Source: Pseudarthrobacter sp. Fe7 (GTDB taxonomy: Bacteria > Actinomycetota > Actinomycetes > Actinomycetales > Micrococcaceae). From it: a stretch of 64,000 nucleotides of DNA. Location: the NCBI GenBank assembly GCA_024372495.1, contig CP099977.1, positions 1 through 64,000 of the forward strand. Reading direction: 5' to 3'. Position numbers and translations under genes: made by a program. This document shows positions 7,545 to 63,766 of this stretch, piece by piece. How positions within the stretch are numbered: the first letter of the stretch is position 1; every line of letters starts with the position of its first letter. The notes under the pieces were generated by a model. It was not told the origin of the DNA. It saw nothing but the letters and a program-made list of their open reading frames with translations, and ran no database searches.

Positions 7545-9107
7545 CTAGTTTTTCCCGAGGAAGATCGGGTTGGTGAGGGCGGCCATGGGGCCCAGCAGCA
7601 GCGTTGTGCCCATATTGGTCCCCTTACTCTCCGTCCCGTCGGTCATGGGATGGCGGACCTCGACGCGCACATAGGCCGAGAGTTGAGCTGTGGTAACCCA
7701 CGTGTGGGTACCTTGGCCCGAGGCCGGGAGGGTGACCTGCTGGGTCTGGCCTTCATCCGTGATGATCCGCAGGACGCCGTTCGGAACACCCGTGACGTCG
7801 ACCTTTACCGTGACCGGAGCGTCCGGGGCGACGTCCAGGCGCTCCCCGACACCGGCTTTCCGTCCACCGGCGGCAACGGTGACATCGAGCGCAATGTCAG
7901 CGGATTCGGCGATCCAGGCTGCGTCCGTTGCGGATGCCCTCCAGCACGGCCTCACGGGACAGTGCGGCCGCATTGACCACGTTGTGGGGAAGACCGATGA
8001 CCTGCGGTGCGCTGTGCGCGTCGCTGTTGCCCATGGCGGGAACCCAGCGGCCGCCCGTGCGGACGGAGTGGGCGAGCATGGAGTCCCAAGTGTTGATGGC
8101 GTACTCGTCGTCAGCGGTCCAGGGTCCGGTCCACACTTCCACGGCATCGGCGTCGTCATAGCCGAACTTCCACCGGCATGCGACATACGGGCAGTAAGGG
8201 TGGGCAGGTACGACGAGGCCGCCGGAGGCGTGGATGTGCTGTGCTTCCTGTTCAAAGCCCTTGTCACGGGCCCGGTAGCGCCAGTCGATCCAGTCCCCCG
8301 GCTCGATGCCGAGGGCAAGGTAGTGGCCGTTGCGCGTGGTGACTTCCTCGCCCGTGAGGATGAGCAGGTCATCACCTGCCAGGGGCCCCACACCCCGTGG
8401 GAAGCAGGGGTGTTGTGGTCGGTACTGATAATGAAGTCGAGCTTCGCAGCCCGCGCCCCGGCAGCGACCTCGGCAGGGGTCCGCTTGCCGTCGGAGTAGA
8501 TGGTATGCAGGTGCGCGTCGCCACGGTACCAGCCGGCGCCCTTGCCTTTGACCTGCAGCGGCGGGTACTGCGGACGGAATGCGGCACCGTCCGGCCCGTA
8601 CTCCAGGGTCACGTTGACGGTGTAATCCATGCCCTGTTCCGCCACCTGGTAGGGTCCCAGCGCGATGCTCCACGTGCCCTTACCGACGGGACCTGGGAGG
8701 TACCCCGGGGTGGCCTCGGCGGCGCTGATGAAGAACTCGGTCCGGAAGCCGCCCGACCAGCCGCGGAAACCCTTCCCCGCCAGGTCGGTGCCCTTTTCAT
8801 CGAAGACGCCGATGTCGCAGGAGTTGGAGAGCAGCCCAGGGGTGGCTGTGGGCTTGCTGTAGCTGTAGGAGACGCTGATCTTGTTGACACCGGCAGGAAC
8901 CTGGACCGGAAGGTACACGAAGTCAGCCGCGCCAGGGTCGAGATGGCCGGTGATGGTCTGGGTCTTGCTGGTGCCCGTATCCGCGGCGGCGAAGGACATC
9001 GGTGCCAACGTCACGGCAGCACCGGCCAGGGCGGCGGCCAGGAACCCGCGGCGGGAAGCGGTCAGGGAAACACTTTCGCCCTCATGGGCTTTACATGGTG
9101 AACTCAC
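7545..9107 (-). CDS. TAT-exported CehA/McbA-type PHP metallohydrolase, frame broken twice
   Basis: A twin-arginine signal (SRRGFLAAALAGAAV) opens the protein. The PHP domain shows GDAHLHTIYSDGKRTPAEVA, the metal-binding DFIISTDHNTP, LLILTGEEVTTRNGHYLALG, VVPAHPYCPY and MGNSDAH, as in CehA/McbA metallohydrolases, which act on phosphoesters or carbamate esters. The start is uncertain; the GTG at 9107 is favoured over TTG at 9137. Two one-base errors compensate: a base missing from the G-run 8382-8385 (restores WGPLAGDDLLILTGEE) and an extra base in CAGGCT at 7915-7920 (true CAGCT, restores GRSWIAESADIALDV). The corrected length is 520 aa. Confidence 0.75.
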   Translation of the reverse strand: MSSPCKAHEGESVSLTASRRGFLAAALAGAAVTLAPMSFAAADTGTSKTQTITGHLDPGAADFVYLPVQVPAGVNKISVSYSYSKPTATPGLLSNSCDIGVFDEKGTDLAGKGFRGWSGGFRTEFFISAAEATPGYLPGPVGKGTWSIALGPYQVAEQGMDYTVNVTLEYGPDGAAFRPQYPPLQVKGKGAGWYRGDAHLHTIYSDGKRTPAEVAAGARAAKLDFIISTDHNTPASHGVWGPWQVMTCSSSRARKSPRATATTLPSASSRGTGSTGATGPVTRALNRKHSTSTPPAASSYLPTLTARMSHAGGSSAMTTPMPWKCGPDPGPLTTSTPSTLGTPCSPTPSARAAAGFPPWATATRTAHRRSSVFPTTWSMRPHCPVRPCWRASATDAAWIAESADIALDVTVAAGGRKAGVGERLDVAPDAPVTVKVDVTGVPNGVLRIITDEGQTQQVTLPASGQGTHTWVTTAQLSAYVRVEVRHPMTDGTESKGTNMGTTLLLGPMAALTNPIFLGKN

Positions 9108-9130
9108 CGCCCGAGTCTCACCATACGGAC

Positions 9131-9169
9131 TTAACAACGGGCCGCGCGACAGTTAACAAAGCCTGAACC
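9131..9169 (-). promoter_or_regulatory. PHO-box-like repeats upstream of the PHP hydrolase
   Basis: On the plus strand TTAAC occurs at 9131 and 9153 and TGAAC at 9164, a spacing of 22 and 11 bp. Read towards the gene these are GTTAA/GTTCA cores on one helix face, like the repeats at 5703-5742. The assignment is inference. Confidence 0.4.
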
Positions 9170-9234
9170 GCAGAGATTAATTGGGAGCGCCCTAGCATTT
9201 CACTGTGCATTGCCAGGCGCCCCGCTTCCGGGGG

Positions 9235-9450
9235 TCAGGTGTTCGGAACCTCATTCAATTTCGACCGGATAAAGTCCTGGTCCTCGCGGGAAACGGCTGC
9301 CTCACCGTGCCGTCCTGTGGGAAGGATTTCACCGCTTTCTTTGGAGATCACCGCGGTAATCGTCCGTGGAAGGATCTGGCAGCCGGGGTTGTCGATAAGC
9401 CATTTTCGGGTGGCAGGGTCCAGGCGGCCCCACCGGTCTTTCAAGTTCAT
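9235..9450 (-). CDS. Small conserved hypothetical protein (71 aa)
   Basis: From the ATG at 9450 the product is MNLKDRWGRLDPATRKWLID followed by NPGCQILPRTITAVISKE and ends SKLNEVPNT. It has no signal peptide or membrane segment and a mix of charged residues typical of a folded small protein. The codon pattern and lack of low complexity make it more credible than the antisense readings here. I do not recognise a function. It lies between the PHP hydrolase and the divergent deacetylase and may have its own promoter. Confidence 0.5.
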   Translation of the reverse strand: MNLKDRWGRLDPATRKWLIDNPGCQILPRTITAVISKESGEILPTGRHGEAAVSREDQDFIRSKLNEVPNT

Positions 9451-9805
9451 TGCTGGATCTTGCCTCCGTACGCGGGTGAAAGAACGGGCTTTGCAGCGGG
9501 CGCGTTGCCCAACCCAAACCACAAGCTAACGCCGGCATGGACGGCGGGCACAGGGACCAAAGTCCCCCGCCATAGCCCTTTATTACGCCCGCCGCTCCGG
9601 GGATAGGGCAAGGTTCAGGAAACCGCAAGGCGGCCAAGGTATCCTCCCGGTATGACCCCCGCTTCCAGGCTGCTTTTCCGCGCGCCGCAGCCTGCGACAT
9701 TGCACGTCCGGCAGATTGCGGCTTCACCGCACCTGCCACGTCCGCAGGCCCCGGCAAGGGACGCCGAACCCGTGCCACAGGCCTGTCACGGAAGAGGAAT
9801 TAGCT
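9451..9805. other. Intergenic region without a supported gene
   Basis: This 355-nt gap separates two divergent genes. It holds an imperfect GGCGGG/CCCGCC hairpin around 9543-9571 and, at its right end, GGAAGAGG at 9790-9797, which fits as the ribosome site for the GTG at 9806. I see no gene or clear operator in it. Confidence 0.4.
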
Positions 9806-62500: not shown

Positions 62501-62635
62501 GCACCCCTCCTCCTGCGGCACCGCACCAAGGGACACCTTGGGTTGGGCGCGCAAACGCTAGTGGTGCCCGACGGCGCGTCCCGGCTGCCCGCCGTCGTAC
62601 GCCTTGCGTGCGGGGCACGGCGGGGGAATTGCAGC

Positions 62636-62683
62636 GCCAACCGCGGGCCGTATCCAAGAGGATGCGGCCCGCGGTTGGCTTTA
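62636..62683. terminator. Strong hairpin between convergent genes
   Basis: GCCAACCGCGGGCCG (62636-62650) pairs perfectly with CGGCCCGCGGTTGGC (62665-62679), with TTT after it on the plus strand. It serves the lytic-protein gene and abuts the end of the opposite VOC gene. Confidence 0.8.
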
Positions 62684-63085
62684 ACTGCCAGCCTGCCCCG
62701 CGCTGTCCTGCCCGGCGTTCCGCCACGGGATGTACTGGACAGACCACTTGTTCCCGTCCGGATCGGCGAAGTGCACGAAGTGGCCCCAATCCTGGACGTC
62801 CACATCGCTGACATCAACGCCGTTGTTTTTCAGGTAATCGTGCGCAGCCTTGATGTCGCTGACCACAAGCTGCAGGTTTGACCCGGTGCCGGGAGGGGCG
62901 TCCGTGAGCCCCTCCCCGATGCAGATGGAGCAGGCCGAACCGGGCGGCGTCAGCTGCACGAAGCGGATGTCGTCCGACGGCCGCTCGTCGTAGTCGGCGT
63001 TGAAGCCCACCTTGTTGACGTAGAAATCCTTGGCGCGGTCAACGTCGGATACGGGAACAAAGGCAAGTTCGAGTTTCCAGTCCAT
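62681..63085 (-). CDS. VOC-family (glyoxalase-like) protein
   Basis: The ATG at 63085 (MDWKLELAFVPVSDVDRAKD) is preferred over GTG 63091. The 134-aa product shows the two beta-alpha-beta-beta-beta modules of the vicinal oxygen chelate fold: FYVNKVGFNADYDERPSDD and IKAAHDYLKNNGVDVSDVDV, with the final metal-site region FADPDGNKWSVQYIPW. The glyoxalase pattern HxxxQ at the first metal position is not obvious, so the activity is open. The frame is intact. Confidence 0.8.
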   Translation of the reverse strand: MDWKLELAFVPVSDVDRAKDFYVNKVGFNADYDERPSDDIRFVQLTPPGSACSICIGEGLTDAPPGTGSNLQLVVSDIKAAHDYLKNNGVDVSDVDVQDWGHFVHFADPDGNKWSVQYIPWRNAGQDSAGQAGS

Positions 63086-63129
63086 CCGCACAGGCTAGCG
63101 GCGGAGCCGCCGTCCGAAAAGGGGGAACG

Positions 63130-63766
63130 CTACCCTGCGATGCCGTAGAGGCGGTCGCCGGCGTCGCCCAGGCCGGGAACGATGTAGGACTTTTCGTTGA
63201 GCTTCTCGTCGATGGAGGCCAGGACGATGTGCACGTTAGCGTCGCCGAGTTCCTCCTCCAGCTTGGCCAGGCCCTCGGGGGCCGCCAGCAGGCAGATGCA
63301 GGTGACGTCGGACGCGCCCCGCTTGAACAGGAACTTGATGGCCTCGCGCAGGGTGCCGCCGGTGGCCAGCATGGGGTCCAGGACGAACACCTGGCGTCCG
63401 GTGAGATCCTCCGGAAGCCGCTCCGCGTAGGTGATGATGTCCAGCGTCTCCTCGTCCCGGGCCATGCCCAGGAAGCCCACCTCGGCGGTGGGGACCAGCT
63501 TGGTCATGCCCTCCAGCATGCCAAGGCCTGCACGCAGGATGGGGACCACCAGCGGGGTGGGCTTGGTGAACGCGGTGCCGATGGTGGTGCTGACCGGCGT
63601 CTCGATGGTAACGGGCTCGGTGCGGACCTCGCGCGTGGCTTCGTAGGCCAGCAGGGTCACCAGGCTCCTCCGTCAGCTGCCGGAAGACCGGCGACGGCGT
63701 GTTCTTATCCCGCAGGACGGTGAGCTTGTGGGCGACCAGGGGGTGGTCAACAACGAGAGTACGCAT
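63130..63766 (-). CDS. upp: Uracil phosphoribosyltransferase, frame broken
   Basis: The ATG at 63766 starts MRTLVVDHPLVAHKLTVLRD. The PRPP loop is VFVLDPMLATGGTLREAIKF, the flexible region VVPILRAGLGMLEGM and the uracil-binding end GLGDAGDRLYGI. The extra base in CAGGCT 63661-63666 breaks the frame after residue 34; removal restores FRQLTEELVTLLAYEATREV and 211 aa, the usual length. The enzyme salvages uracil to UMP. Immediately upstream lies the end of a PAP2 phosphatase gene on the same strand. Confidence 0.93.

What the first reader, a model, noticed from the sequence alone, without database searches (positions are those of the whole stretch)
7915..63666. 34 frameshifts caused by one identical change: AGCTG read as AGCCTG
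Seen directly: at 7915, 11198, 11438, 13375, 13634, 17356, 18233, 18254, 18659, 18734, 21036, 26623, 27762, 28230, 29076, 30549, 33800, 34342, 35628, 35896, 36587, 36694, 37112, 38337, 39942, 41980, 45085, 47045, 48220, 49336, 54408, 56705, 61050 and 63661 a gene loses its frame exactly at AGCCTG (or CAGGCT on the other strand). Removing one base gives AGCTG and rejoins conserved protein sequence, and every corrected gene has the normal length. All 34 sites have G or C on both sides of AGCTG; none is followed by A or T. Not every SAGCTGS site is hit (43146, 49676 and 29086 read correctly). Core genes (upp, ndh, manB, pckG) are included, so real inactivation is not credible. The likely cause is a motif-specific basecalling error, and a modified base in an AGCT-type site (an unknown methyltransferase) would explain the specificity. 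If so, the error pattern is a fingerprint of an epigenetic mark in this strain.
Basis: partly seen in the sequence, partly recalled or inferred. Interest (0 to 1): 0.88.

Follow-up and report, generated by a model that had tools for sequence, protein, structure and literature searches.

The report
Genome-wide false frameshifts at AGCT sites
In this genome record of a soil bacterium, 33 of the 34 reported gene breaks could be compared with related strains and all 33 are one extra base at the same short DNA word (AGCT); they are likely sequencing errors rather than real mutations, probably provoked by a chemical mark on the DNA, so an estimated 1,400 to 1,900 sites in the record would be wrong.

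Summary
Observation confirmed. All 34 sites read AGCCTG/CAGGCT. 33 have aligned congeners and each shows the extra base (32 unanimous; 61050 in 2 of 3); 7915 is untested. In 313,809 bases covered by at least three of four congeners, this assembly has 156 private 1-2-base insertions, 133 at AGCCT; the same test on the four congeners gives 0, 0, 1 and 1. The word SGAGCCTGS marks this genome as the only outlier among 206 genus and 396 order genomes.

Interpretation partly supported. Real inactivation and translational recoding are not credible: 91 congener reading frames hit, 74 sites sense and 55 antisense. The motif is better stated as AGCT with G/C flanks: CGAGCTGC is misread at 32 of 36 sites, AAGCTG/TAGCTG at 0 of 251; five AGCTC sites gain C and several AGCT sites lose T. 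I favour a modified base at AGCT causing long-read consensus errors. A candidate writer exists: one intact cytosine-5 methyltransferase in a defence island, absent from the four aligned congeners. Its target, the sequencing platform and the mark are untested. The kind of artefact is known; here it is insertions rather than mismatches.

The parts
7915..7920 (-).
11198..11203 (+). AGCCTG, one base longer than in 2 of 2 relatives
11438..11443 (+). AGCCTG, one base longer than in 2 of 2 relatives
13375..13380 (+). AGCCTG, one base longer than in 3 of 3 relatives
13634..13639 (+). AGCCTG, one base longer than in 3 of 3 relatives
17356..17361 (-). AGCCTG, one base longer than in 4 of 4 relatives
18233..18238 (+). 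AGCCTG, one base longer than in 4 of 4 relatives
18254..18259 (-). AGCCTG, one base longer than in 4 of 4 relatives
18659..18664 (+). AGCCTG, one base longer than in 4 of 4 relatives
18734..18739 (-). AGCCTG, one base longer than in 4 of 4 relatives
21036..21041 (-). AGCCTG, one base longer than in 4 of 4 relatives
26623..26628 (+). AGCCTG, one base longer than in 4 of 4 relatives
27762..27767 (+). AGCCTG, one base longer than in 4 of 4 relatives
28230..28235 (+). AGCCTG, one base longer than in 4 of 4 relatives
29076..29081 (-). AGCCTG, one base longer than in 4 of 4 relatives
30549..30554 (+). AGCCTG, one base longer than in 4 of 4 relatives
33800..33805 (-). AGCCTG, one base longer than in 27 of 27 relatives
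34342..34347 (-). AGCCTG, one base longer than in 27 of 27 relatives
   Evidence: 22 of 23 in the earlier run
35628..35633 (+). AGCCTG, one base longer than in 27 of 27 relatives
35896..35901 (+). AGCCTG, one base longer than in 27 of 27 relatives
36587..36592 (-). AGCCTG in the phosphomannomutase gene, one base longer than in 27 of 27 relatives
36694..36699 (+). AGCCTG in the phosphomannomutase gene, one base longer than in 27 of 27 relatives
37112..37117 (+). AGCCTG in the phosphomannomutase gene, one base longer than in 27 of 27 relatives
38337..38342 (+). AGCCTG, one base longer than in 28 of 28 relatives
39942..39947 (-). AGCCTG, one base longer than in 27 of 27 relatives
41980..41985 (-). 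AGCCTG in the PEP carboxykinase (GTP) gene, one base longer than in 31 of 31 relatives
45085..45090 (-). AGCCTG, one base longer than in 29 of 29 relatives
   Evidence: 17 of 20 in the earlier run
47045..47050 (-). AGCCTG, one base longer than in 29 of 29 relatives
48220..48225 (-). AGCCTG, one base longer than in 27 of 27 relatives
   Evidence: 19 of 20 in the earlier run
49336..49341 (+). AGCCTG, one base longer than in 22 of 22 relatives
54408..54413 (+). AGCCTG, one base longer than in 20 of 20 relatives
56705..56710 (+). AGCCTG, one base longer than in 4 of 4 relatives
61050..61055 (+). AGCCTG, one base longer than in 2 of 3 relatives
63661..63666 (-). AGCCTG in the upp gene, one base longer than in 4 of 4 relatives
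40340..40347 (+). site one base shorter than in relatives, which carry AGCT there (4 of 4): T-loss form of the same error
17465..17472 (-). probable T-loss form of the same error (AGCT in 2 of 4 relatives)
33253..33260 (+). probable T-loss form of the same error (AGCT in 3 of 4 relatives)

Best explanation
The extra bases are absent from aligned congeners and cluster at AGCT sites; they are likely sequencing-consensus errors, not real DNA, and probably arise because a modified base at AGCT disturbs long-read basecalling. Shown: at 32 of 33 testable sites every aligned congener lacks the base, 133 of 156 private insertions in 314 kb fall at AGCCT, and they depend steeply on the two bases on either side (SGAGCTGS, CCAGCTGG). 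Inferred: the strain was assembled from long reads without short-read correction; AGCT carries a methyl mark (5-methylcytosine is most likely); in G/C-rich flanks the altered signal is decoded as one extra C, or less often as a lost T, and polishing keeps it. Inferred with less certainty: the writer is the intact 474-residue cytosine-5 methyltransferase at contig 1, 4,022,119-4,023,543, which lies in a low-G+C defence island.
Against: No raw reads or platform record were available, so neither the artefact nor the mark is directly shown. The steep flank dependence (GCAGCTGG 0 of 58, CCAGCTGG 16 extra against 10 intact sites) is not explained by AGCT methylation alone. In the Listeria case errors were mismatches, not indels; here I found no clear substitution excess at AGCT (T to C at AGCTG 4 of 251 against 0-2 of about 249 in congeners). 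Three congeners with a methyltransferase homologue (G113 86%, G033 70% with one stop, G075 57%) show no AGCCTG excess (444, 383, 371), although their sequencing method is unknown. PF00145 proteins occur in 9 of 18 congeners, among them G009 and G003, which are about as close to the window (87% and 85%) as the four aligned ones. The methyltransferase's target is unknown. A Type I (PF02384) enzyme and a PF01555 enzyme are also present.
Confidence: 0.6

Rival explanations
1. The error is a plain basecaller or polisher bias at G/C-rich octamers such as SGAGCTGS, with no modified base involved.
For: Dependence on the exact octamer is steep, GCAGCTGG is spared, and substitutions, the usual sign of a modified base in the papers seen, are not clearly raised at AGCT.
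Against: No other genome scanned shows the excess: 205 congeners and 395 of the order; a congener assembly rich in indels (L027, Hiyo4, 23 private deletions in 21 kb) has no AGCCT insertion. How many of these are uncorrected nanopore assemblies is unknown.
Confidence: 0.35
2. The extra bases are real mutations, made by a motif-specific mutator or insertion mechanism.
For: They are consistently present in the deposited sequence and confined to one motif.
Against: About 42 per 100 kb, 91 reading frames hit in 344 kb, 24 of them more than once (three times in phosphomannomutase), metabolic genes such as PEP carboxylase, glycine dehydrogenase and PEP carboxykinase included.
Confidence: 0.02
3. The strain decodes AGCC-type quadruplets by programmed frameshifting, so the genes are functional.
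For: Identical local sequence at many in-gene sites.
Against: By the frames I assigned, 55 of 129 in-gene sites have the motif on the non-coding strand, so the mRNA there reads CAGGCT instead; 36 other AGCCTG sites of the window have the same length in all aligned congeners.
Confidence: 0.01

Closest known systems
Modification-mediated nanopore consensus errors (Listeria, Chiou et al. 2023, PMC10687267, passages read)
   Same: 1,533-5,670 errors per affected genome, centred on a short motif: GCAGC in four strains that carry a methyltransferase-encoding mza system absent from the good-quality strains, GCTGG in a fifth strain; removed by whole-genome amplification.
   Different: Errors there are mismatches with few indels (7-306); here they are single-base insertions and some deletions at AGCT, with no clear substitution excess. 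No amplified library exists here.
AGCT cytosine-5 methyltransferases M.AluI and M.AscII (PMC11879396 and PMC8112702, passages read)
   Same: Recognise AGCT; M.AscII is from a strain named Arthrobacter sp. NEB688; M.AluI shows strong flank effects (prefers GG-AGCT-CC).
   Different: Neither sequence could be compared with the candidate here; the candidate's target is unknown and hot flanks here are SGAGCTGS rather than GGAGCTCC. AGCT in NEB688 was detected at only 290 of 13,771 sites.
Methylation-induced errors in Klebsiella outbreak genomes (PMC11610573, passages read)
   Same: Strain-linked motif errors in native nanopore data.
   Different: Purine or pyrimidine ambiguity at RACG/CGTY, not indels.
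Mza-type defence locus (PADLOC models MzaC, MzaD)
   Different: MzaD match is weak (E 9.9e-6), other Mza genes were not identified, the methyltransferase itself matches general type II and DruM2 models rather than an Mza one among the 25 shown of 58, and NOV_C, GmrSD_N and Mokosh genes are interspersed.

Membership tests
Modification-mediated long-read consensus error | Errors centred on one short motif | tested here: met
   133 of 156 private insertions at AGCCT; AGCT 22-fold enriched in relatives' sequence at insertions, next AACT 9.3-fold
Modification-mediated long-read consensus error | Restricted to one strain or lineage, absent from relatives | tested here: met
   0 to 1 in four congeners, 0 in 27 named loci, sole outlier of 206
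Modification-mediated long-read consensus error | Affected strain carries a methyltransferase that unaffected relatives lack | tested here: inconclusive
   Homologue in own and only 3 of 205 congeners, no PF00145 in the four aligned ones; but those 3 carriers show no excess
Modification-mediated long-read consensus error | Mismatches dominate | tested here: not met
   No clear substitution excess at AGCT; the claim is therefore 'works like', not strict membership
Modification-mediated long-read consensus error | Errors vanish after whole-genome amplification | not testable with these tools
   No reads available
AGCT-specific cytosine-5 methyltransferase (M.AluI/M.AscII type) | Cytosine-5 methyltransferase catalytic domain with intact frame | tested here: met
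   PF00145 1e-56 (residues 25-201), dcm TIGR00675 201.6 bits over cut-off 100.65, 474 aa open frame
AGCT-specific cytosine-5 methyltransferase (M.AluI/M.AscII type) | Methylates AGCT | not testable with these tools
   Only the catalytic half matches Pfam; M.AluI and M.AscII sequences not at hand
Homopolymer indel error | Errors at runs of one base | tested here: not met
   AGCT holds no run; a separate class of 47 of 95 deletions lies beside runs of four or more
Programmed ribosomal frameshifting or quadruplet decoding | Signal on the coding strand | tested here: not met
   55 of 129 in-gene sites antisense

The most novel reading that the evidence does not exclude
A finished public assembly alone carries a readable imprint of a DNA methylation system: AGCT marks written by the cytosine-5 methyltransferase of an Mza-like/Mokosh defence island convert into single-base insertions in SGAGCTGS and CCAGCTGG, an indel-type error class not described in the papers I saw, so methylation motifs could be mined from error-bearing assemblies without raw data.
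Probability: 0.35. Interest if true: 0.5.

Novelty: new member of a known kind. Interest (0 to 1): 0.36.

Why it matters
A genome held as the representative of its species would carry an estimated 1,400 to 1,900 false single-base insertions (excess of SAGCCTGS over four congeners; extrapolation of 133 in 313,809 bases). That would account for its completeness of 78.87 and would mislead pseudogene, gene-content or metabolic analyses. If the cause is a modified base, motif-specific indels found by comparison with relatives become a way to read a methylation motif from an assembly and to nominate the enzyme, which is directly testable with AluI digestion or an amplified library.

Tried and rejected
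Deamination or C-to-T signature at AGCT: rate 0.063, within the range of other NCT contexts (ATCT 0.077, TTCT 0.060), and CAGTTG density is close to that of congeners: rejected. Substitution errors at GCWGC or GCTGG, as in the Listeria case: centre-T substitutions in GCTGG are 19 against 8.4 expected (13 of them T to C), but split by the preceding base they are few (AGCTG 4 of 251, GGCTG 7 of 415) and congeners reach 2 and 7: not taken as part of this pattern. GCTGS as the core instead of AGCT: all 133 extra bases were assigned to AGCCT words, and five lie in AGCCTC: rejected. Avoidance of AGCT in the genome: not assessed beyond the counts. rRNA genes: five 23S genes located; the 16S search did not complete; rRNA was not examined further. 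A viral-contig search with a window protein gave no relative. The plasmid search only helped place the genus. Literature: nine searches; no listing or passage that I saw describes AGCT insertions in an assembly, which is not proof that none exists. Changed on checking: the four aligned congeners are not the only near ones (G009 and G003 are about as close and carry PF00145 proteins), so I lowered the best explanation from 0.62 to 0.60 and raised the octamer rival from 0.33 to 0.35.
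Full report
What was checked. The window is contig 1, bases 1-64,000, of a 4,465,898-base genome in two contigs with completeness 78.87. 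Named relatives of one window protein are Arthrobacter and Pseudarthrobacter, and one Micrococcaceae bin. All 34 coordinates hold AGCCTG or CAGGCT, each flanked by G or C; 29 of 34 are GAGCCTGS and 5 CAGCCTGS. Aligned to four congeners and 27 named loci, 33 of 34 sites have at least two aligned relatives. At 32 every aligned relative has one base fewer; at 61050 two of three; 7915 has none aligned. Of 48 other AGCCTG words in the window, 36 are of equal length in all aligned congeners, 7 have none aligned, 4 are mixed and 1 is a further extra base, so AGCCTG as such is not the problem.

More than chance. I aligned the first 344 kb of the contig to about 400 kb each of four congeners. Over 313,809 bases covered by three or more, there are 156 private one- or two-base insertions supported by all covering relatives; 127 lie at AGCCTG and 133 at AGCCT, counting a word within about 8 bases. 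Applying the same rule to each congener against the other three gives 19, 25, 24 and 31 private insertions, of which 0, 0, 1 and 1 lie at AGCCT. In the region around 32-55.5 kb, for which 27 named loci of 3.9-21.6 kb exist, this assembly has 15 of 16 private insertions at AGCCT and none of the 27 loci has one. One of them, Arthrobacter sp. Hiyo4, has 23 private deletions there, mostly beside C or G runs, and still no AGCCT insertion; so an indel-rich assembly does not produce this pattern by itself.

Genome-wide. SAGCCTGS occurs 3,269 times against 1,301-2,320 in 18 congeners, and SAGCTGS 5,403 against 5,640-9,291. The sharper word SGAGCCTGS occurs 1,500 times against 175-481 in 205 congeners; in 395 other genomes of the order, nine of them congeners already counted, no rate exceeds about 146 per Mb (sizes rounded), against 336 per Mb here. 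Six far stretches of 20 kb, one of them the island described below, show the same excess (GAGCCTGS 40 per 100 kb against 11-14 in congeners). The rate in SGAGCTGS is even along 344 kb, 0.58-0.71. The excess over four congeners of similar size (mean 1,872) suggests about 1,400 false sites; extrapolating 133 in 313,809 bases gives about 1,900.

Anatomy of the motif. Extra C against intact: CGAGCTGC 32/4, CGAGCTGG 24/10, GGAGCTGC 23/16, GGAGCTGG 22/26, CCAGCTGG 16 against 20 strand-counts (10 sites), GCAGCTGC 5 against 40 strand-counts (20 sites), CCAGCTGC 1/58, GCAGCTGG 0/58, [AT]GAGCTGS 3/66, SGAGCTG[AT] 1/55, SGAGCTCS 4 against 72 strand-counts; AGCTG after A or T 0 of 251. Ten private deletions also fall where at least half of the relatives carry AGCT; AGCT is 7.8-fold enriched (8 of 48) among deletions not beside a run. 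AGCT is the most enriched four-letter word of the relatives at insertions (22-fold, 73 of 156); AACT is second (30 of 156), which I read as relatives carrying the synonymous GAACTG (reading inferred). Substitutions are not clearly raised at AGCT. So the common core is AGCT, and flanks decide whether the consensus is wrong and how.

Why it is not biology. Of 133 sites, 129 fall in 91 congener reading frames (chosen by composition in G011, so single assignments may err), 74 with the motif on the coding and 55 on the other strand; 2 were unmapped and 2 not in a clear gene. Twenty-four frames carry two to four extra bases. Thirty of the 91 were run against NCBIfam; names over the cut-off include PEP carboxykinase (GTP), uracil phosphoribosyltransferase, phosphomannomutase, PEP carboxylase, glycine dehydrogenase, histidine ammonia-lyase and mannonate dehydratase; several had no match at the threshold used. 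ndh was not confirmed. Recoding would need the signal on the mRNA, which the 55 antisense sites lack.

A second artefact class is present: 47 of 95 private deletions lie beside a run of four or more, against 4 of 21, 5 of 27, 9 of 27 and 6 of 36 in congeners. This fits long reads without short-read correction, which is inferred; the platform was not read.

Known context. Chiou et al. (PMC10687267, passages) report Listeria nanopore genomes with thousands of errors at GCAGC, in four strains with a methyltransferase-encoding mza system, or at GCTGG in a fifth, cured by whole-genome amplification; those errors were mismatches, not indels. PMC8112702 (passages) lists AGCT as a 5-methylcytosine motif of Arthrobacter sp. 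NEB688, assigned to M.AscII, though detected at few sites. PMC11879396 (passages) reports that M.AluI has strong flank effects with a GG-AGCT-CC preference. PMC6329791 (passages) lists AGCT as an m4C motif in a Thaumarchaeota genome bin, so the type of mark is open. PMC11610573 and PMC11649196 (passages) document related errors and the value of amplified libraries.

Verdict. The sites are in the record as described and, in my judgement, false as biology (artefact confidence about 0.97). A modified AGCT is the favoured cause (0.60), the named methyltransferase a reasonable but unproven writer. The kind of artefact is known; its indel form and AGCT motif make it a new member.

Noticed in passing
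[not shown]
   Followed up: partly
L027 (Arthrobacter sp. Hiyo4): 23 private one- or two-base deletions in 21 kb, mostly beside C or G runs: another frameshift-rich assembly with a different error signature.
   Followed up: partly
window and following 280 kb: Second error class in this assembly: private deletions beside runs of four or more bases (47 of 95).
   Followed up: partly
L143 (contig 2, 41471-42397): Type I-like N6 methyltransferase (PF02384) on the second contig.
   Followed up: no
G033:C1:1242410-1243765: Congener homologue (70%) of the methyltransferase with one internal TGA.
   Followed up: no
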